Shown in pieces: positions 18,561-50,399 of a DNA stretch of 64,000 bases; position 1 is the stretch's first letter, and every line of letters begins with the position of its first letter. Below the pieces are notes generated by a model. It searched no databases, had not been told where the DNA came from, and was given only the letters and a program-made list of their open reading frames with translations. The stretch comes from Nephrocerus scutellatus (taxonomy: Eukaryota; Arthropoda; Insecta; Diptera; Pipunculidae). The position numbers and the translations under genes were made by a program. The stretch spans positions 61,165,016 to 61,229,015 of the forward strand of contig OX352763.1 in assembly GCA_947095585.1 (NCBI GenBank). The letters run 5' to 3'.

Positions 18561-18828
18561 GAAAAAGGTAAACTAATGGTCTGTGATCTGTTATAATTTT
18601 AAATTTTCGTCCAAACAAATATGGTCGTTGTGTTTTATCGCCCATACTATTGCCAGTAACTCTTTTTCGATAGTGCTATAATTCTTCTCGGCACTTTTCA
18701 GAGTCTCGCATAAGCAATGGGTTTGTCATCGAAATTGGACAATACAGCCCCTAGTGCAAAACCTGAGGCGTCTGTCCGTAAAATGAATTCTTAGTCGAAA
18801 TTCGGGAATTGAAGAATTTGGGGACTAG

Positions 18829-25629: not shown

Positions 25630-25934
25630 TGAAGACTAAGAAAATAATAACTTGCATAATAAGCATATATGGCATAAACAAACGTCCGCTGATCACGCTA
25701 TAATTACTTTGTATTTATTGTGTGGTTCATATGCGGAAGGCATTGCAAGGATTACTTAAATTAGTTGTTTGGATCGTATGCAGAAGGCATTGCGAGGATT
25801 CACATCATTTTGGTATGGATTTTCGGGAACAAAGCAATTTCTCAAGCAAATCGCATTAAATTCGGTATGTAGCACTAAGATGCGATTATAAGACTTATTC
25901 TTATAGAAATTCTGGAATTTGGTTTTAAAAAGAA
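25630..25934. repeat. Noncoding stretch with one satellite unit
   Basis: No gene. Two related 26-bp blocks (GGAAGGCATTGC core) lie near 25735 and 25787. 25805-25925 is one diverged unit of the 118-bp satellite found in tandem at 58206-58675 (TTCGGGAACAAAGCAATTTCT). Confidence 0.55.
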
Positions 25935-28751: not shown

Positions 28752-29477
28752 TTATGGAATATGCGTTTCCTTAACCAAATAATAATCTTGGCAATCGCAG
28801 AGAACATGTTCGGATGACTCCTCATCCTCCGCACAGAATCTGCATTCTGTTAGAGAGCCCACACCTATTTTGCTAAGATGGTATCTAAGGCCACAGTGGC
28901 CAGTTAGAAAACCTACTATTTTCCTAATGCTACCTTTATCAAGATTCAGGATTTCTTTGTATGAATAGGGTCTGATCAGTTGTTTGGATTGATTTAGCCC
29001 TGGGGTATTAATCCAATGTGCCAGGCGAAGTTCGCCCTCCCAACAGTTTAACACCTTTGTGGCGGCACACCAGTTGACGCTACAAAAAGGTTCGGGTCCT
29101 ATGAGTGCAGTTTCTGAGCCAGCTCTAGATAGTTCATCTGCGGCTTCGTTGCCTGCGATACCTCTATGACCTGGTACCCAACCGAGCTTAACACTGTTGT
29201 GTCTGGCCAGAGATTGCAATGCTTCGTAGCAGCTTTTTACTATTAAAGAGTCCATTAAGTTGGACGACAGCGCTTTGATTGCTGCCTGGATGTCTGAGTA
29301 AATATATATTCTAGCGCCTTTAACGCCTTTGCTAAGGTTTAACCTGGCACAGATCTTAATGGCATGGAGTTCGGCTTGGAAGACCGTTGGACTGTCTCCC
29401 ATTGGTATCGAGACCTTTGTATTAGGTCCGTAGACACCGGCTCCAACTCCAGATTCCATCTTTAATCCATCAGTGAA
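28752..29477 (-). pseudogene. LOA LINE RNase H and C-terminal zinc motif
   Basis: RNase H residues are visible: FTDG next to the stop, ELHAIKICA (Glu), IYSDIQAAI (Asp) and WVPGHRGIAGNEAADELS. They are followed by a C-terminal Cys/His cluster (CRFCAEDEESSEHVLCDC). RNase H would remove the RNA template during target-primed reverse transcription. A TAG at 29478-29480, in the same frame as RT, separates the two; in related sequences this position is likely a Trp. Confidence 0.85.
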
Positions 29478-31644
29478 CTAAACCAGACCATTAGTGTCTA
29501 GTGTCGGAGCACCATTTGACCAGCTTGCGCGGTCTGAGATCTCTACTTCAAATAACCTTCCGAAACAGTACTCCCTGACCATAACGTCCGGTATTGTGCA
29601 GAACATGTCTCTTTGGGGAATTGAGTTGAGAATACTCAGGTGTCCCACAAGGTCGCCTGGTTTATACTTAAATTCTAGTTGCAGCTTAATAGCGCATCTA
29701 GCGGCCGTCTTCCTGATGAATACATGAAGGGGCGAAAGACCTACGATAGCTTCTAATGCTGTCGTTGGGCAGGTGCGCATAGCACCTGTAATACCTAGAC
29801 AGGCAATTCTTTGGAGCTCCTGAAGCTCGTTTGCCGTTTTTCGCTCGAGTACCTTGGGCCACCATATTATGGCTGCATACGAGATTATGGGTCTCACCTT
29901 GAATGTGTAAATCCAATATATCATCTTAGGATTGAGGCCCCAAGTACTGCCGTGAAGTCTCCTGCAGGCCCATAGGGCCCTTGTAGCGCGTTTAGTAGCA
30001 GACTTGATATGAGCATTCCAGTTAAGTCTTTTATCAAGGATAACACCGAGGTATTTGACCTCGCTGGAGTACTTAAGAGTGGTGCCTTTAATGGTGATTG
30101 GGTTTAAGTCAATCAAAATTCTTTTGGTGAAAGGCACTAGAACCGTCTTGCAAGGATTGATGGATAACCCTTCCCTGCTACACCAGTCTAAAACTTTTAA
30201 GAGCGCACATTGCATGACAGCAGAGATAGTCTTGCAGTGTTTGCCTCTAATTATAATTGCCAGGTCGTCAGCATAACCAATGGCGGTGTAGCCTGATCTG
30301 TGTAGATTGGCCAAGTGATCATCTATGACCAGTGACCACAGAAGGGGAGAGAGAACTCCTCCTTGGGGGCATCCCTTTACTGCGGTCACAGACACTGACA
30401 CTCCTCCTGAGAAAGATGTAATATCCCGACTCTCGAGCATAGCCCTAATCCACAGATTGGTCGAGATTTCGATACCCTTGTTGCTAATAGCTCTCTCTAT
30501 AGAGTCATAGCCAGTGTTATCGAAGGCGCCTTCAATGTCCAGAAATGCACACAAAGCAACCTCCTTGGATCGAAATGTTCCTTCTATCTTTTTAACCAGA
30601 TAGTGGAGGGCACCTTCTGTGCTTTTGCCTTTTCTGTATGCAAACTGGCTTAAGGGCAAAGGAGCAGACACCTCTAGTCTGCTTCTATTATGAACATTAA
30701 TGAGTCTCTCCATGATTTTCAGGACAAACGATGTTAGACTGATTGGTCTGTATGATTTAGGTAGTTCACTATGCCTATTGCCTGGTTTGGGGATAAAAAT
30801 CACGTTTACCTGTCTCCAGGCAAAAGGGATGTATCCCCAGTTAAAGCTAGCTCTAAATAATAAAATTAAACTCGGAAGGATTGCATCGATCGCCTTCTGT
30901 AGAAGAGCAGGAAAGATGCCATCCCCCCAGTGGCTTTGAGTGGTTTGAAGGAGCCTACTGCCCATCTAACCTTATCTGAGGCAAATATTTTACCAGATAA
31001 ACTATTAGCTCTACTAGCGATACTAACCCTACGGTCAATCGTGTTCGAATTTGTGTGTGGTACACTGTTGTACGAGCCGAGGAAATGAACATGTAGAAGT
31101 GTTTTTAGTGTGTCCTCCCGGTGCCGTCATTCTTTTTCAACAGACCCACACTATTTGTCTGATCCTTAACAAGTGCCTTGTGGATTCGCGCAGCTGCTGG
31201 CATTTCAGCGATATTCTCGCAGCACTTCCTCCACGTGGCCCGCTTAGATCGTCTTAATTCAGAGTTATATTCTGTAAGGGCGGACTTATATTCGTCCCAC
31301 CTCTTTGTGTGTTTAGCTGAGTTGAAGAGCTTTCTAACTTTCCTCCTGAGCTTGGCCACTATGTCATTCCACCAAGGAACTTTGCGTTTACAAAGATTAG
31401 TTTTGACGACACAACTGCCATGGTAGGAAGTAAGTAGTAAATCATTTACTTGGTAAGCTGCCTCGTCTAGTACCTCTATTGAGTCAATAGTTGAGACAAG
31501 CATATCTGATTTGGAGAGAACTAGTCCTCGATAAAGATTCCAGTCGGTTGACTTAGGATCGTATCTGGGAGAGGCATGTTCCAACGCGCCTGGAATGTCA
31601 AACCTGATGTATTGGTGGTCTGACAGCGAGGCCTTATCGGACAC
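29478..31644 (-). pseudogene. LOA LINE reverse transcriptase
   Basis: The minus-strand frame 29478-30965 holds RT blocks: PKSYRPISLTSFVLK (near 30760), AFLDIEGAFDNT with the catalytic Asp (near 30540), GCPQGGVLSPLLW (near 30370), IGYADDLAIII (catalytic Asp pair, near 30270) and YLGVILDKRLNWN (near 30040). Upstream, 31105-31644 is the linker after the endonuclease with SDHQYIRF (endonuclease His) near 31610, in another frame. A frameshift lies near 30960-31100. Otherwise the RT is well preserved. Confidence 0.85.
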
Positions 31645-32254
31645 ATGCCAATTAAAAATTGAATTTGAGATAAATGGACTCGCGAGTGTGAGATCTAGTA
31701 TCTCTTCGCGAATCGCATTTACGAAAGTTGGTTTAGAGCCCTTGTTTGCGATATCTACATTATTGCTAATAAGATAATCTAAAAGACACTCACCCCTTCG
31801 ATTGATACTGCTGCTTCCCTAAACCTCATGATGAGCGTTGGCATCACATCCTATGATGAAATGGATGTTTCTATCTTTACAGTGCGTGATCATATCCTGC
31901 ACCTCTTTAGGCGGAATCGCCGGGGAAGTATGCCGAGGCACATACAATATTTTGTTTCCCCCTCTCGGTCGGAACCTCCACTAGAACGGCAACCAGGTCC
32001 CTAGTTGTAAATTCTGGAATGGGAAGGAAGTTAATGTTAGATCTAATAAGGCAGGCCGCTCTTGGAACTGCCTCCCCACATTTTACTATTAACTTACCTT
32101 TCCCGTCCTTTAGACCCTTTACCTGTCCGCTAATAGCCGAAGGCTCCTGTATGAGGCCAAGGGCTATGTTCTCTTCGGCGAATCTTTTGCTAAGTGTAGC
32201 GGACGCCCCCTTAGCATGATGTAGATTCGCCTGTAGCACCTTTATGGTGCTCAT
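31560..32254 (-). pseudogene. LOA LINE endonuclease
   Basis: The frame starts at ATG 32254 with STIKVLQANLHHAKGASA, followed by LIQEPSAI (metal-binding Glu) and ASAYFPGD. It breaks at about 31907 and continues in another frame with GCDANAHH (Asp/Asn) near 31850 and EEILDLTLAS near 31700, ending at SDHQYIRF. It nicks target DNA for insertion. One frameshift and one stop are present. The ORF2 start codon overlaps the ORF1 end region. Confidence 0.82.
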
Positions 32255-32863
32255 CCTTCCTCCTTCTGAGAAAGAGCCTGCCGGATTAGAACCGCTTTTT
32301 TGGGGCCCTTACCCTTACGGCAGGCGGTCTGGCTCGGTTGGCCCGTTGGTCTACCATTGCCTATCCTACTCCTAGGAGTAAGTGCAGCTCTTGCTGCGTT
32401 TTTACCATTTCTGGGGGGAATTGAACCAGATGGCTTGGTAGCCTTGTTGGACGATGGAGCTGGTCGTATTACCAGCTTTGATGTTTCGGTTCCAGACCCG
32501 CTGTGGTCAACCTGCCCGGAAGAGCTGGTGACCGAAGAGACAGTCTTTTGTTCAGCTGGCGCTGGGTCGGAGCCACTCAGACACGCTGGCTCAGTGGTAT
32601 TTTGAGCAGAGCAGTCTGTGTTAGAGGTGCATTTGTCAGATGCTGAGTTCTTATCGGTGCTCTTAAGAATCAGCCTAATCTGACCAAAGCGTTACCCTAT
32701 AATGCCTTTGTTGGCACAGAGTCTTATCATGGAGGCGTCGTCAACCGCCATTACAAGATGAAGGAGCGCACCTTCCTTCTTTCTCTGTACCACCTTCCAT
32801 GAAGTGGCATTTAAGCCTTCGTTCTGGGCCTCGATTGTGGCCAGAACCTTCTCTGAAGGGAGT
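32255..32863 (-). pseudogene. LOA LINE ORF1, C-terminal part
   Basis: Minus-strand reading gives EKVLATIEAQNEGLNATSW and VVQRKKEGALLHLVMAVDD near 32700-32850, then a Ser/Thr/Pro-rich tail ending in basic residues at about 32290. A stop near 32690 interrupts it. The N-terminal part lies at 43564-44675, on the other side of the Osvaldo-like insertion. ORF1 proteins of LOA elements bind the element RNA. Confidence 0.7.
32860..32863. repeat. Target-site duplication of Osvaldo-like element 1, left
   Basis: GAGT, repeated at 43560-43563 immediately outside the other LTR. Four bp is a usual duplication length for Gypsy-type integrases. Confidence 0.8.
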
Positions 32864-35356
32864 TGTAACGAGGTTTTTCCCAGCCGGGGTAAAACTCAGT
32901 GTGATCAGGGTTCCTTCTACTACTAGGGTCGTTACAATAAAAAGAATTTGTTTGTTTAGGGAATGGAATTCAATTGTTTTTATTATTGTTTCCTTTTCTT
33001 AGCTTAATCCGTAAACTTAAAACTATTATTGGCTTAAAACTACGTATAAGGTTAAATTGTGTTTGTTAGGCAAGGATTTCACTCTTGCACTCTCGGCCGT
33101 GAGGATAGTTGTACTAGCGTAAGGCGTGGACGTGAAGGCAAGGATTTCACTCTTGCACTTTCAAGCGTGAGGATAGTTGTACTAGCGTAAAGCGTGGACG
33201 TGAAGGTAAGGATTTCACTCTTGCACTTTCAAGCGTGAGGATAATGATACTAGCGTGAAGGCAAGGATTTCACTCTTGCACTTTCAAGCGTGAGGATAAT
33301 GATACTAGCGTGAAGGCAAGGATTTCCCTCTTGCACTTTCAAGCGTGAGGATAATTGCGTTAGCGGAAAGCGTGGATGTGAAGGCAAGGATTTCACTCTT
33401 GCACTTTCAGGCGTGAGGGTAGTTATACTAGCGTAAAGCGTGGGCGTGAAGGCAAGGATTTCACTCTTGCACTTTCAGGCGTGAGGATAGTTATACTAGC
33501 GTAAAGCGTGGACGTGAAGGCAAGGATTTCACTCTTGCACTTTCAGGCGTGAGGGTAGTTATACTAGCGTAAAGCGTGGGCGTGAAGGCAAGGATTTCAC
33601 TCTTGCACTTTCAAGCGTGAGGATAACGATACTAGCGTGAAGGCAAGGATTTCACTCTTGCACTTTCAGGCGTGAGGATAATGATACTAGCGTGAAGGCA
33701 AGGATTTCACTCTTGCACTTTCAGGCGTGAGGATAGTTATACTAGCGTAAAGCGTGGGCGTGAAGGCAAGGATTTCACTCTTACACTTTCAGGCGTGAGG
33801 ATAGTTATACTAGCGTAAAGCGTGGGCGTGAAGGCAAGGATTTCACTCTTGCACTTCCAGGCGTGAGGATAGTTATACTAGCGTGAAGGCAAGGATTTCA
33901 CTCTTGCACTTTCAGGTGTGAGGATAATGATACTGGCGTAAAGCGTGGATGGGAAGGCAAGGATTTCACTCTTGTACTTTCGATCGTACACTTGTTGCCG
34001 GGAGGAGGGATCACTAGGAAAGAAGACCGACTGTTGGGACTGCTGGCCTTTTATACTCTTCCGTCGAGTGAAGGAATCCCGTTAATGCTACGATCGAAGA
34101 GTCCGTTAAATCGTACGATCGGTCGATGGTGTATTGTTGTTGCTTCCTTTGTTTTGGCATTGTTGTTGTTGTTTGTTGTTGGCCGGTTAGCATTGCTGTG
34201 CTTGATGGCTTGTTGTTGGCCGGTTAGCATTGCTGCGCTTGATGGCTTGTTGTTCCCAGGTCCCGTTGATGCAACGATAGGGAAATCCGTTAAATCATAC
34301 GATCGACCAGTGGTGTAGCGTTGTTGTTGCCTCCGTCGACCCTATGTTGTTTGTTGGTTTTCCTGGTCACCATGCATTGCGTGCTGTTTGTTGTTGTTCT
34401 ATTTGTGATTCGGTGCCATCTTATATTACATGCTCGTTGTTGTTGTCATCGATCGGATCTTTCGAGTCTGCATTGCCCGTTTGTTGTTATTGTACCTCTC
34501 TGCTTGTCTAGTAATGTTGCGAACTGTGGAATGTACGCGGCCATGTATGCATATATTATTTGTTGTTGTTTCCTTCCTAAGTCTGCCCCGTTTTGTAGTG
34601 CATGCTTATTGTTGTTGTTTTCTTGAATCGATCTTCCGAGTCTGCATTGCCCGTTTGTTGTTGTTGTATCTCTCTACTTGTCTGATAATGCTGCGAACTG
34701 TGAACTGTACGCGGCCATGTATTGCATATTGTTTGTTGTTGTTTCTTGAATCGACATCGATCGGATCTTCCGAGTCTGTGTTCTTTGCTTGTTGTTGTTG
34801 TACCTCTCTACTTGTCTGATAATGCTGCGAACTGTGAAGTGTACGCGGCCATGTATTGCATATTGTTTGTTGTTGTTTCTTGAATCGACATCGATCGGAT
34901 CTTCCGAGTCTGTGGTGACTCGTACTGCCTGTGTGTTGTTGTTGCTTCCGAGTGTATTGCGGGTGCGTTTACTCCTTAGTCATTGATTTGAGTATTCCCA
35001 GTCTGTGTGATCTCGTATTATGTTGTTGTTGTTTCGCTCAGCCGCTTGATGATGATGCGTACTAGCTATGTGTGGTGAGTTTACGAGAGAAGAGAGGAAA
35101 AGGGGAAACAATAGAAAACTGGAGTTTCCTGAACCATAAGACGAGAGTATTCTTTTGGTGAGTGTTTTGCAATTTACTCAAGGAGAGTGGGCAGCATGTT
35201 GCAATCCACTTAAGGAGAGTGGGCAACACGTTAAATGAGAAACAAAATACTATGGCGTCTGTTTGTAATGGGTATACAAGTTTACTTTTATTCAAATTAA
35301 AAATGTATATACGAATAGTGTGGAAAAAATTGTGTGGGACAATTTTTTTCCTCACA
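32864..35356 (-). repeat. Osv1 3' LTR (2493 bp) with minisatellites
   Basis: Plus-strand ends are TGTAACGAGG and CCTCACA. It is colinear with 41558-43559 but about 490 bp longer. The difference is mostly in the minisatellite at 33073-33985. A GTT-rich block at about 34130-35040 holds a second set of repeats (about 140 bp, TACCTCTCTACTTGTCTG). Open frames rich in Cys and Leu in this block are by-products of the GTT repeats. Confidence 0.88.
33073..33985. repeat. LTR minisatellite, about 15 units
   Basis: Units of about 52-70 bp start with GCAAGGATTTCACTCTTGCAC and continue GCGTGAGGATA..TACTAGCG, with an optional TAAAGCGTGGACGTGAAG segment that makes long and short forms. The core forms a small hairpin (GCAAG..CTTGC). 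The partner LTR has about 7 units at 41763-42180. Confidence 0.9.
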
Positions 35357-35370
35357 CCTCCCCCTCACTT
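35357..35370 (-). other. Osv1 polypurine tract
   Basis: Minus-strand AGTGAGGGGGAGG directly before TGTGAGG of the LTR. The last codons of ORF3 are encoded by this tract, and the ORF3 stop TGA is the third to fifth base of the LTR. Confidence 0.85.
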
Positions 35371-35699
35371 CGGCGGATGTTGCCTTTCTCTTTCCAAGTA
35401 ACTAGTACTCCAAACCGAGTTTTCCATTGTGTGTGGAGGAAATGTATTCGCCGCATCGTTCCAGTTGCCACCCTTTCCTTGGCTTCATTTATTCTGGCCT
35501 GGAGTTCTTGTGGCAAGATTTCAGCCGTGGTCCCGCCGTCGTGCACCGTGTCGCTTCCTGTGAGTGGCAGGACGTCGTTATGCTGCCTGGGCGCCTCTGG
35601 GTTTGGGGGGTCACGTTCATCCGATACGAGCTTGGTGGGGTCTTCCTGGTGGTGGGCGGTCGTACGGGTGGAATTTCCTCTTTTCCTCTTGTTGTCGGT

Positions 35700-35800
35700 T
35701 TCGCTGTTGCTGCTGCTACTGCTGCTGCTACTGTTGCTACTACTACTGCTGCTGCTGCTGCTACTGTTGCTACTGCTGCTACTGCTGCTGCTACTTCTAT
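35700..35800. repeat. Imperfect trinucleotide repeat coding poly-Ser in ORF3
   Basis: Plus-strand CTG/CTA triplets with a few TTG and TTC (AGC/AGT/AAC on the coding strand). It encodes the Ser/Asn run of ORF3. The AGC/AGT mixture means the amino acid, not just the DNA repeat, has been kept. Confidence 0.8.
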
Positions 35801-36790
35801 CTTGTCTGCTACGGCTCCGGTAGCGATGGCGAGTGCGGCGCGGAGTTCTTTGCCTACTGCGATTGTTCCTCTCTCGTCCTAGGTCGTCGTCGTCTAGTTT
35901 GAGGTCTGGGAGTTTTATCGTTCGTTCGGCATTGCTCCGGATAAAAGCTGCGAGCATCCTTCGTTTCTTGTGGGTGCTGTCCACCGACATCTTCTGTCCT
36001 GGTGATTCGGGTCCAGATAATCCCCATGCGAGGACCTTTTCTGCGGCCTCCAGGAGGAATGCGCCGCAATCCACCCCGTTTTGTTGCTGTGGCATATCCA
36101 TATGACGGCCTGGATAGCAAGTTCGAATTCGGCCCAGGTCCACGGATGCCCCTTCGCTAGGTGCTGTTGTATGACATACCCGCGGATAATTTGGATGGTT
36201 TCCGTCCTCGGTGAATTGGCCCACGAGTTATACACGTCGATGGTGGCGCGGAGTGGTCTGCCCGGGTTGGTAACCACCACGAGGTACCAATGGTTGCCAT
36301 CACAGATGGGCACTAAGACCAGGTCCTTTTCGATGACCTCCTTACGCCGGTCCCACATACTCACCAGTGCGTGTCGCCTGATGGCTGTCCTCTCAGGGTC
36401 CTCTTGCTGCTCTGGTCGGTACTGCTGCATGCGTGAAAAGAGGAACGTGCTACAAACCATGATCCTGTCCCTGTATTCTCCCTCCATCCTTCCTCCTAGC
36501 CACCTTAGTCCGACTTCTACCAGGACGTCGTTTAGATAGACTCCCCTCTTCAGTCGGCAGTAGTCGGCCATTCGTACGTCGACGCCGCCTGGCTCTGGGG
36601 GAAAACTCCCGATCACTTGGCCCAGATCGATTTCTTCGGATGCGGGTGCAATACCTGTGCCCTTTTCGATGATACGTCGTACGGCTTCGTTGTCTTCCTT
36701 TAGTATCCTCTGGTTGTTCATCATGTTTGCTTTCTTCTGAATTTTTGGTTTACTGTTCGGGTTTGATGTCTGACTGGATTCAGTAATCAC

Positions 36791-37006
36791 TTTAGACTAA
36801 TTTTTACTTGCTGAGTGCACTTGAAACGAAAACAAGTTGCGGGACCTGTGTTCCGTTGTTTTCTCCTCTGGCGCAGTTCACTTCGTTGTTATTCCAGTGT
36901 GTTTTGGTCGGTTACAGCATTTAAGCGTCGTGGCGTTGATTTCGATGTTTTCGAGTTGTTGTCACAGCTTTACAGTAGTTCCAGATGAGGTCGTCAAATG
37001 CCGTTT
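36791..37006 (-). other. Osv1 spacer between integrase and ORF3
   Basis: About 215 bp without a coding frame on the minus strand. ORF3 thus has its own start and would need a spliced or separate message. No splice site is claimed. Confidence 0.5.
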
Positions 37007-38524
37007 TTATTTTAAGTGTAAGTGTGCTGTTGATGTGTTGTGCTGGATTTCGTGGATGAGGTTGTCGATCGCTGTCGCATTTTCATCATGCATCTGGCTT
37101 CTCTTTTCGGCTTGTGCTCTGTGGTGTGGTTGCTTGAGGTTTGTTGCTGAGTGTTTTGGCTTCGTGGTTTTAATGGACAGGCGTTTTGCTTGCAAGTTAT
37201 GTGGGTAGCTATACCCTTTATTCTGCCGTTTGCTACTGTAATGTATTTCTGTTGATTCCTGAGGGTGTTCCACGTGAGGTGGCATTGTTGTTGCGATGCG
37301 GTTTGTCTTTTCTGGCTCGGGTGGGGGGTTTCCGTGAAGGTCCTTTAGTTCACTGACATGGGCTGTGCGCTCCTTACTTTGTCCATGTTTCCTCAGCCTT
37401 ACGATGACTGGCGAGATGAAGTCCATCACGTAGTATGGTCCATCGTATCGCGGCGCTAGCTTACTGGCGAACCCTTCTACTGCTTTCGATAAGTGGTGCT
37501 GTTTGACCAGTACTAACTTCCCGATTTCTGGCTTCCAAGTACGTCGCCTGAGATTGTAGTGGCGGGCTTGGTCCTTTGCGGCTCGTTCCAGGTTCTGTCG
37601 CACGATCTCGAAGATTTCTCTCACTCGGGTCTCTCGGTCCTCGGGGTCTTTACCTAGCGTGCCTGTCCCCGGAGTGGTCTCGTCATATAGTGTGTGTGGG
37701 AGGCGTGGTTCTCGGCCTTGTGTCAGAAAGGCTGGGCTGTACCCCGTTGAGTCCTGAACGCTTGAGTTTATCGCCAACATGACTTCGGGCAGCCTTTCGT
37801 CCCAAGTGCGTTGTTGTGACCCTGATAGTTGTGCAATTATCGTTTTGATGGTGCGGTTGGCTCTTTCCGTAGGGTTTTCCTGGGGAGTGTACGGTGCTGT
37901 AAACTGTTGGCGTATGCCCATGGTCTCCAAAAATCGACGAAACGCTCTGCTGCTGAATTGTGCCCCGTTGTCCGTTATCAGGATTTTGGGCACGCCGTAT
38001 CGTGCCAGTATACGTTCGCGAAACGCCCGTTGAACTCTTTCCGTCGTTGCCCTCCTCATTGGGATCAGTTCAACCCACTTTGAGAACCGATCAAAAAAGA
38101 CTAGTAGCATGGTATTTCCGTGTTTCGATCTGGGAAGTGGCCCAATGAAGTCACTGTACAACGTGGCCCATGGTTCGTCGGCCACCTGGGTTAGCATCTT
38201 CCCTGCTGCTTGCTGTTGACTGGGTTTGTAGCACTGGCAGCTTTCGCATCTCTTCACGTGCTGTCGGATGTCGCGAAACATACCCGGCCAATAGTAGCGA
38301 CCACATATTCTCGCCGTGGTCTTCCGGATTCCTAGGTGTCCTGCTGACGCGCTGTCGTGGTTCTCTTGTATTACTCGACTTCGCAGGGTACTCGGCACAC
38401 ACAGCTTCCATGGTGCGTTGTCGTCGTCTCCGGCTCGATGCCCTATGTGTCGATACAGTTGTTGACCTTCGATCACGTAGTCGGGAAATTTGGCGGGGTC
38501 CTCTGCGACCTGGTGGATTTTCTT
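37007..38524 (-). pseudogene. Osv1 integrase
   Basis: A 489-residue open frame from 38476, with N-terminal residues up to 38524. It holds the HHCC zinc finger (HLGIRKTTARICGRYYW, RCESCQCYK), catalytic Asp in SDFIGPLP, Asp in ITDNGAQF and Glu in NPTERANRTIK, and a GPFxV-type C-terminal block (APRYDGPYYVMDF). A basic tail of about 90 residues ends the frame. The integrase itself looks intact. Only an in-frame stop at 38525-38527 separates it from RNase H, so the polyprotein would end early. Confidence 0.88.
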
Positions 38525-39900
38525 CTACAGCCAGTGGCACTTCTGTTGCCCGATGTGTTCTTCGGAGGTCGTCATCAGCGTTTCTTGAGGTTGTCTTGAT
38601 AGCGCGTCTGCGACGACGTTGAGTTTACCCCGCCTGTATTGTATGTCATAAGTGTATTGTTGTAGCTCCAGTGCCCATCGTGCGATCCGACCGGAGGGGC
38701 TGGATATGGAGTTGAGCCATTTGAGGGAGAGGTGGTCTGTTACTACCGTGAACCTATACCCTTCGATATACGCCCGCATCTTCCGTATTCCCCATATGAT
38801 AGACAGGCATTCCTTCTCGGTCTGCGAGTAATTCCTCTCTGCAGGGTTTAGGTGCCGGCTGGCGTAAGCTATGACCCGTTCACTGTCGTCGATCTCCTGG
38901 GTAAGGACTACTCCCAAGCCGTAATCGCTGGCATCTGTCTGAAGTGTGAATTTCTTAGAGAAATCGGGGCATGCCAGGATTGGGGCCTCGGTAAGTTTAA
39001 CCTTCAGTGTTTCGAATGCTTCCTGTTGCTCCTCTCCCCACTTCCAGTGCTTCCCTTTCTTGAGTAAGTTGGTCATCGGTCGTACGGTCTCGGCAAAATC
39101 TGGGACAAACCGTCGGTACCATGAAGCGATGCCCAGATACCGGCGCACTTCTCGTACATTCCTTGGTGGTTGGAGTTCTTTGATCGCCGCCACTTTGTCG
39201 GGGTCAGTGTGTATGCCTTTGTTACTGACCACGTGTCCTAGGTATCGTATTTCTGTTTTGCAGAATTCACACTTTTCCGGGTTAATTTTTAAGTTAGCCA
39301 TTTGCAATCGCTTGAACACCTTGCGCAGATTTTCTATGTGTTCGTCAAACGTCCTCCCGATGACAACTATGTCATCCAGGTATGCAAACGCATGGGGCTC
39401 CATCTCTGGTCCGATGACTCGATCGAGCGCTCGCTGGAAGGTTGCGGGGGCCGAGAGGCAGTCCAAACGGCATAACGCGCCATTGAAACAGTCCACGGCC
39501 GGGTACCGTAAAGGCGGTGTACTGCTTACTCCTCTCCTCCATGGGGATTTGCCAATATCCATTTCTCAGGTCCAGGCTACTGATGAATTTTGCGCCGCGA
39601 AGCTTTTCTAAGATGTGTTGGATTCGTGGTAAGGGGTATGCGTCGGGCACCGATCGTGCGTTCAGTTCTCGATAGTCGATACAGAGTCTCCATTTGCCCG
39701 TCTTCTTTCGCACGAGAACTATGGGCGCGCTGTGGGGGCTATGCGAAGGCTCGATACATCCTTTTTCCAACAACTCGTCGATCTCTGTATTTATTATTTC
39801 CTGCATGGCTGGATTACGGGAGAAGTAGCGTTATTTTATGGGACGCTCGTCGTGCATGACGATTCTGTGTTCCGCGATGTTAGAGACGGCGGGTAGTTGA
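38525..39900 (-). pseudogene. Osv1 reverse transcriptase and RNase H
   Basis: 39372-39806 holds the RT fingers (SAPIVLVRKKTGKWRLCIDY, SLDLRNGYWQI with the first Asp). 38525-39562 holds FAYLDDIVVIG (catalytic YLDD near 39375), the thumb, then RNase H (LQTDASDYGLG, KECLSIIWG, VVTDHLSLKW, NVVADALSR). A frameshift near 39480 separates the two, and a TAA near 39834 lies just upstream. All domains are present in normal order and length. Confidence 0.87.
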
Positions 39901-40494
39901 TCAAATTTCTTGAATTCTTGTTGCAGAAACGCTGAAAGCTGTTCCTGTTCTCTCCGCGGTGTTTCCTGCGTGGTGGTGCATAGTCGGATGTGTTCGGCGG
40001 GCGTGTTGTAATTTTATGGTCTGGCCACCGCAGCTTAGATGGGCCTCCACCCGTGACAAAAAGTCCAAACCTAATATTACTTCGTCCATTGCATCGGGGA
40101 GAATCAAGAATGGAAACTGTATCTCCCTATTACCTATCTTGACATCTAGCTGTAGGGCTTCTCGGATCAGCTTGGCTGTCCCTTCGGCCATCCGCACGGT
40201 CACATCTACGGGTAGGCCCTTTGTTGTTCCTCTTTTGTCCTCCGCAAAACGTTCGCTTACGAAACTCCTAGTAGCCCCTGTGTCAATCGTAGCTTTTACC
40301 GGTCTTCCTCCTAGGGTGATGGTGGCGAATATCCGGTTGGAATCAAATGCGAGGAAGTTTACTGAGTCCGGGGTGTCGGCCTTGGGGTTTCCGTCGCACC
40401 ACGGTTTCGACGGTCCCCTTGCTCGTTTCCCGATCGTTCGACGCGTTTCCGGCAGCATTCCACGGTCCGAACATTTCGCAAGCCGCAGCCCCAA
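39901..40494 (-). pseudogene. Osv1 aspartic protease
   Basis: The retropepsin motif ATIDTGATRSFV (catalytic Asp) is near 40280, and the closing block VILGLDFLS is near 40075. The frame opens at 40494, overlaps the end of gag in another frame, and stops at 39901. The stop may be natural or a lesion, since RT follows after a short gap. Confidence 0.8.
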
Positions 40495-41474
40495 CAGAAT
40501 ATGGTTTGGGGGTTACGACAGTCCCCCCTCATGTGTCCGTCCTGGCCACATCGCAGGAAAGCTGTCCTTACACTTATTCGTCCTTCCAGATTTTGTGCTA
40601 CCATGAAACTCCTTTCGGGTTGTCTGGTCCGAGGCGAGGGTTTGATAGATTCTGCTGCTCCAGCGATGCCTTCAAAGTCTTCCGCTAGGCTGATGAGTTC
40701 GTTGAGGTCTCTAAAGTCCTTCCTCCGGATATAGTACTGGTACTCTTGACGACAGTTCCGGAAGATCCTTTCGACCTGTTGTGCAGTGGTGTAGTTAGCG
40801 TGCCTCATGAGATTTTGCATGACGATGACGAAATCCTTGAAGCACTCCTTTGGCTTTTGTTGGCGTTGACGAATTTCGTCTTCCAAGTGTTCCCAGTACC
40901 TGGAGGGCAGGAAGAACTGTAGGAAGTCTGTCGTGAAGGCGTTCCAGGTCTCCCATTTTCGGTTGTTGTTGCGGAACCATAATAACGCACGGTCATGGAG
41001 CAGTTCCGGCATGGTTGTCGGCAGGAGGTCCCTGTTTAAACAGTAGGCATCCGCCAGTTCTTCTAGCCTTTCGATGAACAGAAGGGGCTCCTTACCCCCA
41101 TCGTATCTCACTGACCACTTCCTCACTTGGTCCATTATTTGAGCGTACGACGTAACTGTCGTGCCCGTCCTGTTTCGCGTTGGAACCAGTTCCGGTGGTG
41201 TCGGAGATGTTGCCCTGATGGTTGTCTTTAGTTCGTCGCGTGCCGTATCTTCAGACGGGTTTAGAGTTATCACGGGCGCTGGTGACAGGCTGCGTTTATG
41301 CTTCTCCTCGAGCTCACTTATCTCGTCCTCCGACGTAACGTCTCGTCCCGAAACATAGCTGGAAAACCTTTTCCTCAACTCTTCCACTGCGCCGTTGCTG
41401 TCGATTCGGAACTCGCTCATGTAGCTCTTCAACTCCTCTTTTGACAGTGTATAAATCCAACTGGTCTTAACCAT
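40359..41474 (-). CDS. gag: Osv1 gag
   Basis: A 371-residue frame starts at ATG 41474 (MVKTSWIYTLSKEEL), 83 bp inside the LTR edge and right after the primer site. The N-terminal 45 residues have a SAP-like helix pair (LKSYMSEF..VEELRKRF). The capsid domain follows (VRKWSVRYDGGKEPLLFIERLEEL is split here as VRKWSVRYDGG and LLFIERLEEL; AQQVERIFRNC). Zinc-knuckle residues CGQDGHMRGDC and CWGC are near residues 315-335. The same N-terminus occurs in Osv2 at 47323. The frame is open, though its last 50 residues may be shifted. Confidence 0.82.
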   Translation of the reverse strand: MVKTSWIYTLSKEELKSYMSEFRIDSNGAVEELRKRFSSYVSGRDVTSEDEISELEEKHKRSLSPAPVITLNPSEDTARDELKTTIRATSPTPPELVPTRNRTGTTVTSYAQIMDQVRKWSVRYDGGKEPLLFIERLEELADAYCLNRDLLPTTMPELLHDRALLWFRNNNRKWETWNAFTTDFLQFFLPSRYWEHLEDEIRQRQQKPKECFKDFVIVMQNLMRHANYTTAQQVERIFRNCRQEYQYYIRRKDFRDLNELISLAEDFEGIAGAAESIKPSPRTRQPERSFMVAQNLEGRISVRTAFLRCGQDGHMRGDCRNPQTIFCWGCGLRNVRTVECCRKRVERSGNEQGDRRNRGATETPRPTPRTQ

Positions 41475-41537
41475 CGTGGTTATATAATTGTGTTCTGTCT
41501 TTATTGGTATAATTTCTTTTCTCTATCAAATTCCAGT

Positions 41538-41555
41538 GTCCCTGCTCGGGCGCCA
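41538..41555 (-). other. Osv1 primer-binding site, tRNA-Lys type
   Basis: Minus-strand TGGCGCCCGAGCAGGGAC, two bases inside the 5' LTR end (CGTTACA). It matches, with few changes, the tRNA-Lys(UUU)-complementary site known from lentiviruses and Osvaldo. Osv2 has the same site at 47208-47225. Confidence 0.85.
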
Positions 41556-41557
41556 AT

Positions 41558-43559
41558 TGTAACGAGGTTTTTCCAAGCCGGGGTAAAACTCAGTGTGACC
41601 AGGGTTCCTTCTACTACTAGGGTCGTTACAATAAAAAGAATTTGTTTGTTTAGGGAATGGAATTCAATTGTTTTTATTATTATTTCCTTTTCTTAGCTTA
41701 ATCCGTAAACTTAAAACTATTATTGGCTTAAAACTACGTATAAGGTTAAATTGTGTTTGTTAGGCAAGGATTTCACTCTTGCACTCTCGGCCGTGAGGAT
41801 AGTTGTACTAGCGTAAGGCGTGGACGTGAAGGCAAGGATTTCACTCTTGCACTTTCAAGCGTGAGGATAATGATACTAGCGTTAAGGCAAGGATTTCGCT
41901 CTTGCACTTTCAAGCGTGAGGATTATTGCGTTAGCGTAAAGCGTGGATGTGAAGGCAAGGATTTCACTCTTGCACTTTCAGGCGTGAGGGTAGTTATACT
42001 AGCGTAAAGCGTGGGCGCGAAGGCAAGGATTTCACTCTTGCACTTTCAGGCGTGAGGGTAGTTATACTAGCGTAAAGCGTGGACGTGAAGGCAAGGATTT
42101 CACTCTTGCACTTTCAGGCGTGAGGATAATGATACTGGCGTAAAGCGTGGATTGGAAGGCAAGGATTTCACTCTTGTACTTTCGATCGTACACTTGTTGC
42201 CGGGAGGAGGGATCACTAGGAAAGAAGACCGACTGTTGGGACTGCTGGCCTTTTGTACTCTTCCGTCGAGTGAAGGAGTCCCGTTAATGCTACGATCGAA
42301 GAGTCCGTTAAATCGTACGATCGGTCGATTGTGTATTGTTGTTGCTTCCTTTGTTTTGGCATTGTTGTTGTTGTTTGTTGTTGGCCGGTTAGCATTGCTG
42401 TGCTTGATGGCTTGTTGTTGGCCGGTTAGCATTGCTGCGCTTGATGGCTTGTTGTTCCCAGGTCCCGTTGATGCAACGATAGGGAAATCCGTTAAATCAT
42501 ACGATCGACCAGTGGTGTAGCGTTGTTGTTGCCTCCGTCGACCCTATGTTGTTTGTTGGTTTTCCTGGTCACCATGCATTGCGTGCTGTTTGTTGTTGTT
42601 CTATTTGTGATTCGGTGCCGTCTTATATTACATGCTCGTTGTTGTTGTCATCGACCGGATCTTCCGAGTCTGCATTGCCTGTTTGTTGTTATTGTACCTC
42701 TCTGCTTGTCTAGTAATGTTGCGAAGTGTGGAATGTACGCGGCCATGTATGCATATTATTTGTTGTTGTTTCCTTCCTAAGTCTGCCCCGTTTTGTAGTG
42801 CATGCTTATTGTTGTTGTTTTCTTGAATCGATCTTCCGAGTCTGTGTTGTTTGCTTGTTCTTGTTGTATCTCTCTACTTGTCTGATAATGCTGCGAACTG
42901 TGAACTGTACGCGGCCATGTATTGCATATTGTTTGTTGTTGTTTCTTGAATCGACATCGATCGGATCTTCCGAGTCTGTGTTCTTTGCTTGTTGTTGTTG
43001 TACCTCTCTACTTGTCTGATAATGCTGGGAACTGTGAAGTGTACGCGGCCATGTATTGCATATTGTTTGTTGTTGTTTCTTGAATCGACATCGATCGGAT
43101 CTTCCGAGTCTATGGTGACTCGTACTGCTTGTTGTTGCCTGTTGTTGCTTCCGAGTGTATTGCGGGTGCGTTTACTCCTTAGTCATTGATTTGAGTATTC
43201 CCAGTCTGTGTGATCTCGTATCATGTTGTTGCTGTTTCGCTCAGCCGCTTGATGATGATGCGTACTAGCTATGTGTGGTGAGTTTACGAGAGAAGAGAGG
43301 AAAAGGGGAAACAATAGAAAACTGGAGTTTCCTGAACCATAAGACGAGAGTATTCTTTTGGTGAGTGTTTTGCAATTTACTCAAGGAGAGTGGGCAGCAT
43401 GTTGCAATCCACTTAAGGAGAGTGGGCAACACGTTAAAAGAGAAACAAAATACTATGGCGTCTGTTTGTAATGGGTATACAAGTTTACTTTTATTCAAAT
43501 TAAAAATGTATATACGAATAGTGTGGAAAAAATTGTGTGGGACAATTTTTTTCTTCACA
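41558..43559 (-). repeat. Osv1 5' LTR (2002 bp)
   Basis: TGTAACGAGG..TTCACA on the plus strand, colinear with the 3' LTR. It contains about 7 minisatellite units at 41763-42180 and the GTT-rich repeat block at about 42340-43250. Outside the repeats the two LTRs are very similar, with scattered single-base changes, indicating a fairly recent insertion. Confidence 0.88.
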
Positions 43560-43563
43560 GAGT

Positions 43564-45104: not shown

Positions 45105-46058
45105 TAGTCAATAGCTTAAATTTCAGCCTCTTTCTAAACAATAACACTCCCATTGACATCGCTCTCGAATTCTTCTCAACAGCAATTTTTGACTGTCTTC
45201 TCCAATCTGTGCCTTATGTGCCACGTAAAAACTGCTCGTCCTCCCCTCCCTGGTATAATAAAGAATTACGTACTCTTCGCAATGCCAGAAACAAATTATG
45301 GAAAACTTACCTGTTATCCAGATCAGACTCAGACTTTTCTTTCTACCAACAAGCTTACTTCCGCTTTTCCACCCTCTGCGAATCTCTCTATCTGGAATAC
45401 CTCTACAGAATGCAACATAGCCTTATCACTGATCGTATACGTTTCTACCAATTTATAAACGTCAAAAGAAAGTCTAAAACTAATCAACACTTCATCAGCA
45501 GACCTAAAGTAATAGCCAACCTCTTTGCCACATTTTTCAGCCAATCATTTAGTGACCACCCTCACTTGACACTTGACTATTTTAACTTCCTGAATAATGG
45601 ATCGCAAACTTCTTTTGTCTCTGTCGATAGGACTGATATAGTGCGCGAAAAGATTAATCGTCTCAAGGATGACTTTTCCCCCGGTCCCGATGGTCTGCCC
45701 GCCATATTCTTAAAAAAATGTGTAAATGCTATAAGTCAGCCCCTTACGACATTATTTAGACTCTCACTCTCCCAAGCCGTTTTCCCAACATTATGGAAGG
45801 ACTCCTTTATTTTCCATATTCATAAAAAGGTAGTAAGAGCGAGGTATCAAACTAGCGACCCGTAGCTAAACTCTCTTCAATGCTTTCACTTCGAAAGCAT
45901 TGTCTACGACTCCCTGTTCTTTCACTGCAAATCGATATTTTCTCCACAACAGCACGGTTTCTTAAAGGCCAGGTCTACTATGACTAACCTCACCGAATTT
46001 GTCTCTTTAACTCTTCAAGCCTTAGAGTATAGTAAGGAAGTGGATGTCATCACAATTT
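45105..46058 (+). pseudogene. CR1/Jockey-like LINE-B: linker and RT N-terminal part
   Basis: The frame 45209-45865 carries the linker (WYNKELRTLRNARNKLWK), then RT blocks FSPGPDGLPAIFLKKC and FPTLWKDSFIFHIHKK. After a frame change near 45870, QHGFLKARSTMTNLTEFV follows. The sequence is cut at about 46055 just before the first catalytic Asp block, where Osv2 begins. It continues at 52531, colinear, with about 20 bp unaccounted for. Confidence 0.8.
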
Positions 46059-47205
46059 GACCACAAATTCACCCCACACATTTTTTTATATATGTATATA
46101 TTTGCACCTTTACTATAAAAAATATCAAATATCAAAATCAATAAAAACCCCGCATGGGAGAAGTATTACTATGCGATTATATTTATTATGAAAAAACAGA
46201 AAACACCGACGGCATCTCTGCTCAGGCCGAATGCACTTCTCCAATATATGATTGCGATTACTAGGCCACACCTCCATTTTTGGGACACTGATCGCAATCA
46301 GCAGAAAACACATTACGAGTATCAAGTAGCCGCGCCTCCACTGCAACCACCATAATGGAGCAATGGGAGAAGAAAAGAGACAGCGCATACTACATACAAA
46401 ATTCTGTGTGCAGTCGGGAGCACAGAAGCGTAGGCAGAAACTCAACAAACGCATGCACAACACCAACACAGTACAAACGCAAGCAGGAAACGAATGATCA
46501 AAAATCAACAGATGAGGTCAACGACCAAGAAGCGTTGACCAACAAGGCAATGCATACACAACGATACAACAATGCTATGCACAAACAGAAAAGCCACTGT
46601 AGACCAACGGAATCCCCTGCAACAACAAATTACAAAGGGGATTTCGTCAACTTTTTTGTGAACAACGATGCCGTTGACAGTGGACAAATTGAAAGGAGAA
46701 AATACAACAACAAAACATCCGTAGCATCCTCATTTCACAGATCAGAACACATAGACACAGCGACTCCTGATAGTGAATTGAGTGAGCATCCTCCTTTCAC
46801 TGATGAAAACACATAGAAAACACATCAAACTACGTGGATACGGAGACTTTGGCAACGAACTGAGCGTAGCATCCTCTTTTCGCTGGTCAACATACTGGAG
46901 CGTAGCAACTCTTTGCAGCGAACAGTGCGTAGCATCCTCTTTTCGCTGGTCAGCACTTCGACGTAACGCAGACGATTTACTTCGATCCCGCTGGACCAAG
47001 GCATCAAAACCACAGGACACACTACGTAGCATCTAAGACCTAAATCAATTATTTCATAATCGATTTTCATTTGTTTTAAAAGAAGGAAATAAAACATTGA
47101 ATTCAGAGTTCCGAACCAAAAATAAATCTTTTATTGTAACGACCCTTTATAACAACGAACCCTGGTCAGACTGAGGGTACCCCGGCTGGGAAAAACCTCG
47201 TTACA
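46059..47205 (+). repeat. Osv2 5' LTR (about 1147 bp)
   Basis: Shares with 50944-52530 the start TGACCACAAATTCACC and the end AAACCTCGTTACA. It lacks about 250 bp present in the 3' LTR after CAACAACAAAAC and has fewer minisatellite units (about 46700-46980, core GCGTAGCATCCTCTTTTCGCTG). AATAAA at about 47086 and 47121 may serve as poly(A) signals. Confidence 0.82.
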
Positions 47206-47207
47206 AT

Positions 47208-47225
47208 TGGCGCCCGAGCAGGGAC
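47208..47225 (+). other. Osv2 primer-binding site, tRNA-Lys type
   Basis: TGGCGCCCGAGCAGGGAC, two bases after the LTR end. Identical to the Osv1 site. Confidence 0.85.
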
Positions 47226-47322
47226 TCTGGAAAATAAGTATCAAGCGAAGAAAATGTATCAAGAAAATAAGTATCAAGCGAAGAAAACCGAATAGCGAAC
47301 AAAGAAAACCAAATTAGCCAAG

Positions 47323-48160
47323 ATGGTGAAAACAAGTTGGGTATATAACCTCACGAAAGACAACCTACAAAGTTACATGGCGGAATTTAGGCTGGACGTA
47401 AACGGCGGGGTAGACGAGCTGAGAAAGCGTTTCACGACTTTCATCACAGGACGAGATGTAACCTCAGACGACGAACAACGCCTGGCGCAACTGGAAGCAA
47501 GACACCAACGTAATCCGTCACCAACGCCCCCACCACTATTAAATTTATATGACGCGACAGAAGAAGAGAAAGTCAAAACACCGGGGTTAACAATCCCACC
47601 ACCACATTTCAGCGTTCACAGACCGAGCACCGAACCGAGGAACAACGGCAACACCTGGTACATCATACGCGATGGTGATCGACCAAGTAAGGAAATGGTC
47701 AGTTCGTTACGACGGAGGCAAAGACCCATTGTCATTCGTCGAAAGACTGGAGGAGCTGGCCGACGCATATTCTTTAGACAAGGATCTGCTCCCGAGAACT
47801 ATGCCCGAATTGCTTCGCGACAGTGGACTGATGTGGTTCTGGAGTAACAACCAGAGATGGCAAAGCTGGAGGGCATTTAAGGGAGACTTCCTGAAATTCT
47901 TTTTGACCACCCGATATTGGGAACATCTGGACGACGAAATCTGCAACGACGCCAGACCGGAAATGAAAGTTTCAAAGATTTCGTGATAACGATGCAGAAC
48001 TTGATGAGGCAGGCAGATTACACTGCGGTACAGCAGGTAGAAAGGATACATAAGAAACATAAGAACGACAGAATTTTGTCGGAGATAAGCGGGAAACGAC
48101 CGAGGGGATCTTCGGAACAGAGGTGCAGCGAAACCCCAGATGATGACACCTCAAACCCAA
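47323..48160 (+). pseudogene. gag: Osv2 gag remnant
   Basis: ATG 47323 opens MVKTSWVYNLTKDNLQ, the same N-terminus as Osv1 gag. The capsid block RKWSVRYDGGKDPLSF is in a second frame (47672-47986), and ESFKDFVITMQNLMRQADY in a third (47917-48309). The zinc knuckles are deleted: the capsid block AVQQVERI runs straight into pre-protease sequence. Confidence 0.8.
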
Positions 48161-48400
48161 TAAATTGCCTACACTTCGACGCAACTCGAGTCTACGCCAC
48201 CATCACCCTAGGGAACGAAATTGTCAAAGCCACGATCGACACTGGTGCGACAAAGAGCTTCATCCGAGAAGCCCTAACCTTTGTCGTACGAATTGGAAGA
48301 GAATTTTGATACTCCCGGAAGTGGTTGACAACAACGTCCTCGGACTAGACTTCCTATTAGAAGTGAACGCCAAATTGAGCTGTGGCGCTTGCAGCTGACT
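48161..48400 (+). pseudogene. Osv2 protease remnant
   Basis: The active-site block ATIDTGATKSFI is near 48235, followed by a deletion of roughly 40 residues. The closing block NVLGLDFLLEV is near 48330 in another frame. Inactive. Confidence 0.75.
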
Positions 48401-48407
48401 TGCAGCT

Positions 48408-49290
48408 TTGCTCCAAGAAGAATTCCAAAAGTTTGACAAACTACCAGCGGTGTCTAACATCACTGAACATAAGATCCTGATGCACGACGAGCGACCAATC
48501 AAGCAACGATATTTTCCCCGCAACCCGGCAATGCAGGAGATAATCAACTCAGAGATAGATGAACTGCTAGCAAAAGGCTGCATAGAACTCTCGCACAGCC
48601 CTCACAGCGCACCTATTGTGCTCGTCAAGAAGAAGACGGGAAACGGAGGCTTTTGTGTAGACTATCGTGAACTCAATGCACGGTCAACCCCCGATGCATA
48701 CCCATTGCCCCGAATCCAACACATTCTGGAACGACTACGAGGCGCTCGGTTTATAAGTAGCCTGGACTTACGGAACGGGTACTGGCAAATACCCATGGAG
48801 GAGAACAGCAAGAAATTCACTGCCTTCACGGTGCTGGTGGAGCACCGGCTACATTTCAGCGGGCACTCGATCGGGTTATCGGACCAGAGATGGAGCCACA
48901 CGCATTTGCATACCTCGATGACATCATCATCATCGGGAGGACTTTTGAAGAGCACTTAGCGAATCTACGCAAGGTGTTCAGACGACTACAAGCGGCAAAC
49001 TTAAAGATCAATCCAGAGAAGTGCGAGTTCTGCAAGACGGAACTGAAATACCTGGGACACGTAGTCAGTAGAGAAGGAATCCATACGGACCCAGAAAAGG
49101 TCGCCGCCATCAAAGAACTGCAGCCCCCACGGAACGTGCGAGAGGTACGACGATACTTGGGAATCGCGTCTTGGTATCGCCGTTTCTTCCCCGACTTCTC
49201 GGAAACCACACGACCACTGACCGCTCTGCTGAAAAAGGGAAAGCATTGGAAGTGGACAGAGGAACAACAAACAGCGTTCGACTAGATGCA
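48408..49290 (+). pseudogene. Osv2 reverse transcriptase remnant, RNase H deleted
   Basis: 48408-48959 holds the fingers (SAPIVLVKKKTG, SLDLRNGYWQIPM). A deletion near 48840 removes the MPFGL block. 48890-49285 continues with FAYLDDIIIIG (catalytic YLDD) and the thumb up to EEQQTAFD. At about 49285 the sequence jumps to the very end of RNase H, so the RNase H catalytic residues are gone. Confidence 0.8.
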
Positions 49291-50300: not shown

Positions 50301-50399
50301 TCACACAGAAATCCACCAACAACAGACCCGAAACATGTTCGGCTACACAGAGATGAGAACAAAGTCCTGAAACAAGTTTCAACGCAGGCAAGGAGTCAC

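What the first reader, a model, noticed from the sequence alone, without database searches (positions are those of the whole stretch)
35352..36790. Ulp1/C48 cysteine protease as third ORF of an Osvaldo-like LTR retrotransposon
Seen: the ORF between integrase and the 3' LTR has the ordered C48 signature, with LND start, GNHW (His), IDVYNSW (Asp), PQQQNGVDCG (Gln and Cys), then an RS/Ser-rich tail. Established: Ulp1/SENP enzymes process and remove SUMO; Ulp1-like domains are known in some DNA transposons, and the third ORF of Osvaldo/Ulysses-type elements has been discussed as env-like. Inference: a captured deSUMOylase-type protease could counter SUMO-dependent silencing (the piRNA/heterochromatin pathway in flies uses SUMO) or process element proteins. 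I do not know of a described case in this clade.
Basis: partly seen in the sequence, partly recalled or inferred. Interest (0 to 1): 0.88.

Follow-up and report, generated by a model that had tools for sequence, protein, structure and literature searches.

The report
SUMO-protease gene inside an LTR retrotransposon
A jumping gene in this genome carries, after its usual replication genes, its own copy of an enzyme that cells use to trim SUMO tags from proteins, which may help it get past SUMO-based silencing of jumping genes.

Summary
The ORF between integrase and the 3' LTR (minus strand, 35352-36796) encodes a Peptidase_C48 domain. In the same genome the ORF is a family trait. In 28 representative ORFs, chosen mostly for open frames, His, Gln and Cys are present in 28 of 28 and Asp in 27 of 28. 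It follows integrase, evolves under constraint (dN/dS 0.12-0.42 in 14 measurable of 19 pairs) and its distances track integrase's. By profile and tree it is ULP2/SENP6-7-type, the SUMO-chain-editing branch, not Ulp1-type; the host's own SENP6/7-like gene was found. The retroviral aspartic protease is kept, so C48 does not replace it. C48-deleted derivatives have amplified, so C48 is not needed in cis. I favour a trans-acting SUMO-chain protease that loosens SUMO-dependent silencing; this is inference. Seven literature searches listed no LTR element with C48. One or several captures cannot be decided.

The parts
32864..43559 (-). whole LTR retrotransposon copy (degenerate)
   Evidence: LTR pair; TG...CA ends and ACTC target duplication at 32860-32863 and 43560-43563 (read)
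41558..43559 (-). 5' LTR (2002 bp)
32864..35356 (-). 3' LTR (2493 bp; longer because of a 55/68-bp tandem array at 33068-33981)
41538..41555 (-). primer binding site TGGCGCCCGAGCAGGGAC, tRNA-Lys type
   Evidence: sequence read; that this is a tRNA-Lys complement is recalled; PMC3286476 (passages) gives tRNA-Lys for the Osvaldo lineage
40359..41522 (-). gag frame
   Evidence: Pfam Retrotrans_gag 8.3e-9
39901..40512 (-). aspartic protease frame (retropepsin retained)
   Evidence: Pfam gag-asp_proteas 2.2e-16
38525..39565 (-). reverse transcriptase / RNase H frame (part of RT lies in another frame, 39372-39830)
   Evidence: Pfam RVT_1 2e-15, RT_RNaseH 2.6e-40; frames
37007..38524 (-). integrase frame (H2C2, rve; GPY module read by eye)
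35915..36796 (-). third ORF, first frame: C48 domain from the LND helix through His and the (Asn) Asp position; its end beyond the overlap is out of register
   Evidence: Pfam C48 1.4e-13; SENP7 1.8e-13
35352..36227 (-). third ORF, second frame: Gln/Cys box (PQQQNGVDCG), Ser/Arg-rich tail and conserved end module; its stop codon lies in the first five bases of the 3' LTR

Best explanation
The third ORF is a cellular-type SUMO protease of the ULP2/SENP6-7 (fly Velo) branch that this retrotransposon lineage has carried, probably since before its families split. SHOWN by sequence: C48 domain, conserved catalytic residues in relatives, ULP2 branch, position after integrase, dN/dS below 1, distances that track integrase, Ser-rich tail plus a conserved end module, retained aspartic protease, amplified C48-deleted derivatives. 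INFERRED: the protein is an active isopeptidase that acts in the nucleus on poly-SUMO, in trans, as an accessory factor. [quoted passage not shown] Deleted derivatives could then profit from intact relatives. The window copy itself is broken and should make no active enzyme.
For: Profile of 20 C48 domains vs PDB: SENP7 7e-54 (186 bits) against SENP1 3.5e-29 (105 bits). Tree: element rows + SENP7 + host SENP6/7-like gene + P0001 apart from the ULP1 rows, support 100/99. His/Gln/Cys 28 of 28, Asp 27 of 28 element rows. dN/dS 0.12-0.42 in 14 of 19 pairs; 5 pairs saturated. Integrase vs C48 distances r=0.86, Mantel p=0.0001, 17 elements. Aspartic protease kept in the window element and in the pol frames of L058 and L028. 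46 of 140 genome matches lie in frames of 447 aa or more with no stop inside the match (my count by eye). Copies of one family are 97.0-99.5% identical over ORF3 (13 pairs printed), so recently amplified. SENP6/7 and Ulp2 mainly edit SUMO chains, and SENP7 acts on KAP1 and is targeted by HP1 (review PMC4281951, passages). [quoted passage not shown]
Against: No enzyme, RNA or localisation data. C48-less derivatives have amplified: 36 of 113 closest integrase matches have no listed C48 downstream, and 4 of 4 looked at lack it, so it is not strictly needed in cis. The window copy and one near copy have Asn at the Asp position. The element C48 rows are not one clade in the best tree and are one side of a branch in only 8% of 200 bootstrap trees, with a long-branch warning; one clade is not rejected (p-AU 0.336), but a single capture is not shown. 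Structure prediction gave pLDDT 50 and no PDB match at E<=0.001. PMC6117582 (passages) warns that SENP6/7 loop 1, essential for activity there, is not conserved in yeast or plant ULP2s, so specificity cannot be read from homology. In some copies C48 is fused to pol (L028), which fits a role inside the particle as well. That the host is an insect with the fly SUMO/piRNA route was not tested.
Confidence: 0.5

Rival explanations
1. Replication-cycle role: the protease removes SUMO from integrase, Gag or repair factors around integration, helping nuclear entry, integration or repair, as was suggested for Ulp1/OTU domains of transposons such as Ginger1.
For: C48 follows integrase in the fetched loci that reached upstream; in L028 and at C6:16507121-16509658 C48 and integrase lie in open frames of the same length, 1743 and 1774 aa, so the domain could be packaged with pol. 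The suggestion for Ginger is in PMC2836005 (passages).
Against: C48-deleted copies with open integrase frames have spread, although particles may be complemented in trans.
Confidence: 0.22
2. Second maturation protease: C48 cuts the element's own Gag/Pol, like adenoviral protease, a distant fold relative.
For: Structural similarity of the SENP catalytic region to adenoviral proteases, which cleave viral proteins, is noted in PMC4281951 (passages); fused pol-C48 frames exist.
Against: A canonical aspartic protease is retained (window frame 39901-40512, L058, L028; other families were not checked for it); best match is a SUMO-chain editor; C48-less copies spread.
Confidence: 0.1
3. Active on another modifier (ubiquitin, Nedd8) rather than SUMO.
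For: SENP8 of the same family acts on Nedd8, not SUMO (PMC4281951, passages); it is matched weakly here (1.6e-7).
Against: Profile favours SENP7 by about 80 bits over SENP1 and about 150 over SENP8; the tree agrees on the ULP2 branch (SENP8 was not in it).
Confidence: 0.12
4. Passenger or binding-only domain without selected catalysis.
For: Asn at the Asp position in two copies; repeated loss.
Against: His/Gln/Cys 28 of 28 and Asp 27 of 28 across families down to about 27-30% identity; dN/dS well under 1. Rows were chosen mostly for open frames, so the first figure is biased upwards.
Confidence: 0.06

Closest known systems
SENP6/SENP7, yeast Ulp2, fly Velo (host ULP2-type SUMO proteases)
   Same: C48 domain with the same motif style (FLND, RRHxxVRxWT, VPVNExxHWYL, DSL, QxNxxDCG); best PDB match SENP7; a host homologue was found in this genome (L067)
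   Different: In the element the domain is in one exon-free frame, lacks the 55-residue insert of the SENP7 chain (residues 144-198 unmatched), is multi-copy behind integrase, with a Ser-rich tail and an end module of its own; 25-44% identical to the host gene in six rows
Ginger1 DNA transposons (Hydra and others) with Ulp1 domain
   Same: Gypsy-type integrase together with a Ulp1-family domain
   Different: Ginger1 is a DNA transposon with terminal inverted repeats and the domain inside the transposase (PMC2836005, passages); here an LTR retrotransposon with gag, aspartic protease, RT, RNase H and usually a separate ORF. Ginger domains were not compared by sequence
Mutator-like elements with Ulp1 domain (plants, hydra, lancelet)
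   Same: mobile element carrying a ULP domain (PMC2836005, passages)
   Different: other transposase class; not compared by sequence here
Osvaldo lineage of Ty3/gypsy (Osvaldo, Ulysses, woot, mosquito elements)
   Same: tRNA-Lys primer site, LTRs of 1-2 kb, mostly 4-bp duplications, about 9-12 kb elements (PMC3286476, passages)
   Different: the passages seen mention no C48 ORF; among the lineages curated in PMC12992720 (species not named in the passage seen) the 17 with a third ORF, a predicted env, all belong to gypsy/gypsy, not gypsy/osvaldo

Membership tests
Peptidase family C48 (Pfam PF02902) | profile match above the curated cut-off | tested here: met
   window first frame 51.6 bits vs 20.7, second frame 19.1, below it; 9 of 9 whole third ORFs of relatives 62.8-117.8 bits
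Peptidase family C48 (Pfam PF02902) | His-Asp-Gln-Cys catalytic residues, family as a whole | tested here: met
   H, Q, C 28 of 28, D 27 of 28 chosen element rows
Peptidase family C48 (Pfam PF02902) | His-Asp-Gln-Cys catalytic residues in the window copy itself | tested here: not met
   two frames, Asn at the Asp position
Peptidase family C48 (Pfam PF02902) | papain-type Ulp fold | tested here: inconclusive
   AlphaFold2 of the window fragment, 5-row alignment: pLDDT 50.2, no PDB match at E<=0.001
ULP2/SENP6-7 branch | closer to SENP6/7 than to SENP1/2/Ulp1 | tested here: met
   (100/99)
ULP2/SENP6-7 branch | preference for SUMO chains | not testable with these tools
   needs biochemistry
Ty3/gypsy LTR retrotransposon | LTRs, target duplication, primer site, gag-PR-RT-RH-IN order | tested here: met
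Osvaldo lineage | groups with Osvaldo/Ulysses in a pol tree | not tested
   no named Osvaldo-lineage sequence was at hand
Osvaldo lineage | tRNA-Lys primer site and long LTRs | tested here: met
   vs PMC3286476 (passages); 5' LTR 2002 bp in, 3' LTR 2493 bp above the stated range
Ginger1 transposon | DNA transposon without LTRs and reverse transcriptase | tested here: not met
   direct LTRs and RT present

The most novel reading that the evidence does not exclude
A whole lineage of LTR retrotransposons (host probably an insect) encodes a heritable, trans-acting SUMO-chain protease taken from a host ULP2 gene as an anti-silencing factor against SUMO-dependent (piRNA/heterochromatin) repression, with C48-deleted derivatives living off the carriers: a retroelement-encoded eraser of a silencing signal.
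Probability: 0.35. Interest if true: 0.9.

Novelty: new variant of a known kind. Interest (0 to 1): 0.74.

Why it matters
SUMO is a hinge of transposon silencing in flies (Su(var)2-10, SetDB1) and bears on KAP1/HP1 chromatin in mammals. A retrotransposon that carries its own ULP2-type protease would make a direct arms race over that step testable, and carriers and deleted derivatives in one genome are natural comparisons. It also widens the set of mobile elements with ULP domains from DNA transposons to an LTR retrotransposon, and points to ULP2 rather than ULP1.

Tried and rejected
Env-like third ORF: not supported; C48 explains the domain part; no search for envelope features was made. Retropepsin replacement: rejected for the window element, L058 and L028, where the aspartic protease is present. 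Similarity of the N-terminal module of some families to the conserved C-terminal module: not supported (hhalign probability 0.5%). Identity of the C-terminal module: best PDB match only E=0.19. Structure of the window fragment: uninformative. Relatives elsewhere: none in the protein collection with the window frame, 4 distant proteins with the 20-row alignment, none confirmed in viral contigs; the collections seem poor in insects, so breadth over species is untested. Time and donor of capture are open: neither one clade of all element C48 (p-AU 0.336), nor element C48 with the host gene (0.311), with SENP7 (0.098), nor the L029 group with the host gene (0.086) is rejected. L049, first taken for a possible host gene, is an element fragment (82-86% to element ORFs in the four whole-length rows).
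Full report
WHAT IS THERE. The element lies on the minus strand at 32864-43559: LTRs with TG...CA ends, an ACTC duplication at both outer ends, and a primer site TGGCGCCCGAGCAGGGAC two bases inside the 5' LTR. Reading inwards: gag (40359-41522), aspartic protease (39901-40512), RT/RNase H, integrase (37007-38524), third ORF (35352-36796), whose stop lies in the first five bases of the 3' LTR. LTR identity over the longest aligned piece (1801 columns) is 95.4%; the rest holds a tandem array that differs in length between the LTRs.

THE THIRD ORF. The first frame (35915-36796) matches Peptidase_C48 at 1.4e-13; the Gln/Cys box is in a second, overlapping frame (35352-36227) that alone scores 0.0013. 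The copy is therefore broken; open copies exist elsewhere.

A FAMILY TRAIT. The source genome (613 Mb, unnamed) could be searched. With the window frame 140 matches came back, with the Pfam profile 150, with a second family's domain 150; only the best candidates are scored and the lists overlap, so these are lower bounds. 46 of the 140 rows lie in frames of 447 aa or more with no stop inside the match (my count by eye). I read 62 loci in six frames. The 19 short loci L009-L027 did not reach integrase. Of the other 43, 41 show an integrase match beside the C48; in L042 its pieces lie on both strands and L045 is rearranged. The two without are L049 (an element fragment) and L048 (a host gene). 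I aligned 28 element ORFs, chosen mostly for open frames (a bias towards intact ones): His, Gln, Cys in 28 of 28, Asp in 27 of 28. After the domain come a Ser-rich or repetitive tail and a conserved end module of about 45 residues (12 rows aligned, 19-64% identical to the first; missing, cut or shifted in L042, L045, L052, L061, L062), without a PDB match. In one of the 46 rows C48 is fused to pol (L028, 1743 aa); a second fused copy follows from equal frame lengths of 1774 aa for integrase and C48 at C6:16.507-16.510 Mb.

WHICH PROTEASE. A profile of 20 domains finds SENP7 at 7e-54 (186 bits), SENP1 at 3.5e-29 (105), SENP2 at 4e-27, Ulp2 at 3e-20, Ulp1 at 2.9e-16, SENP8 at 1.6e-7. The window's own fragment also finds SENP7 first (1.8e-13; next protein SENP2, 1.3e-4). 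The genome's own genes were found: a Ulp1/SENP1-like frame (L048) and a SENP6/7-like gene whose domain is spread over two frames, presumably exons (L067). In a tree of 28 rows (21 of the 28 element rows; 7 near-duplicates or damaged rows left out; 7 others) elements, SENP7, L067 and P0001 stand apart from the ULP1 rows with 100/99 support. In the best tree the element rows need two changes, and they form one side of a branch in 8% of 200 bootstrap trees; the program warns of long branches; one clade is not rejected, p-AU 0.336. Element C48 is 25-44% identical to the host gene in six rows compared.

SELECTION AND DESCENT. Nei-Gojobori estimates on the domain: 19 pairs, 14 with measurable dS, dN/dS 0.12-0.42; 5 saturated. 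Pairs within families are not independent, no test of significance was made, and integrase was not put through the same estimate. Integrase and C48 distances correlate (17 of the 21 elements had a usable integrase stretch; r=0.86, Mantel p=0.0001), and both trees are compatible with the same three groups, with C48 diverging faster, e.g. 0.04 vs 0.22 and 0.16 vs 0.53. In one family 13 printed pairs among nine copies are 97.0-99.5% identical over ORF3. So ORF3 travelled with pol and was still kept in recent bursts.

LOSS. Of 113 integrase matches nearest to the window's, 77 have a listed C48 downstream on the same strand; 36 do not (C48 lists only, both capped, so 36 is an upper bound). By integrase identity the 36 are 9 rows at 96-98%, 3 at 86-91% and 24 at 79-80%. 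I looked at 4 of the 36: all 4 lack the domain and keep the ORF3 end. Two of the 96-98% rows share one junction (L070, L071; about 1.05 kb missing relative to the window element); two of the 79% rows share another, larger loss (L068, L069). A junction shared by dispersed copies means that the deletion came before the spread. The second element in the window (46053-52530) also lacks C48 relative to L044. C48 is thus dispensable in cis, as expected for a trans-acting accessory protein, or for a gene of modest use.

MECHANISM. I favour a nuclear SUMO-chain protease that works in trans against SUMO-dependent silencing. Support from papers (passages only): SENP6/7 and Ulp2 chiefly edit SUMO chains, SENP7 acts on KAP1 and is brought by HP1 (PMC4281951); [quoted passage not shown] Against easy inference: SENP6/7 loop 1 is not conserved in yeast or plant ULP2s (PMC6117582). 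That the host is a fly is only my guess from chromosome sizes and was not tested.

LITERATURE. Searches of the held PMC library on this question: Osvaldo+retrotransposon+Ulp1 (1 paper, on Ginger), LTR retrotransposon+Peptidase C48 (0), and the term sets (113 papers, 20 listed; 10; 547, 25 listed; 23, 20 listed; 9). In the listings I saw no title or abstract on an LTR retrotransposon with a ULP/C48 ORF. I saw passages of seven papers (PMC2836005, PMC3286476, PMC5408442, PMC12992720, PMC7272611, PMC4281951, PMC6117582) and read none whole. Repbase notes and most subscription papers were not searched, so 'not in print' means not in those searches.

Noticed in passing
46053-52530 (+): A second LTR element of the same lineage (69-72% nt in RT/IN pieces), facing the first, with the C48 part of its third ORF deleted and only the tail left (about 50456-50933).
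   Followed up: partly
28752-32691 (-): Non-LTR retrotransposon frames with RT (PF00078, 1e-32) and RNase H (PF00075, 9.1e-11), close beside the 3' LTR.
   Followed up: no
11738-19185: Near-perfect tandem duplication: 2745 bp at 99.9% plus 1420 bp at 99.6%; recent duplication or assembly effect.
   Followed up: no
58202-58662 and 25804-25923: Tandem array with ~118-bp unit; a single related unit (92%) lies 32 kb away.
   Followed up: no
G000 C1:59912999-59914540; C2:56.345-56.465 Mb; C5:66745758-66748387: Two C48 matches within one open frame (900 aa on C1; 1267 aa on C2) or side by side (C5), and a cluster of C48 frames up to 1482 aa on C2; only partly fetched (L037, L060), unexplained.
   Followed up: partly
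L028 (G000 C6:14430330-14437444): C48 fused in frame to pol in one 1743-aa frame; a second such frame of 1774 aa at C6:16.507-16.510 Mb.
   Followed up: partly
L036, L038, L041, L046, L052: An extra N-terminal module (ending DPKTGxxxVKR or similar) before the C48 domain; no similarity to the C-terminal module.
   Followed up: partly
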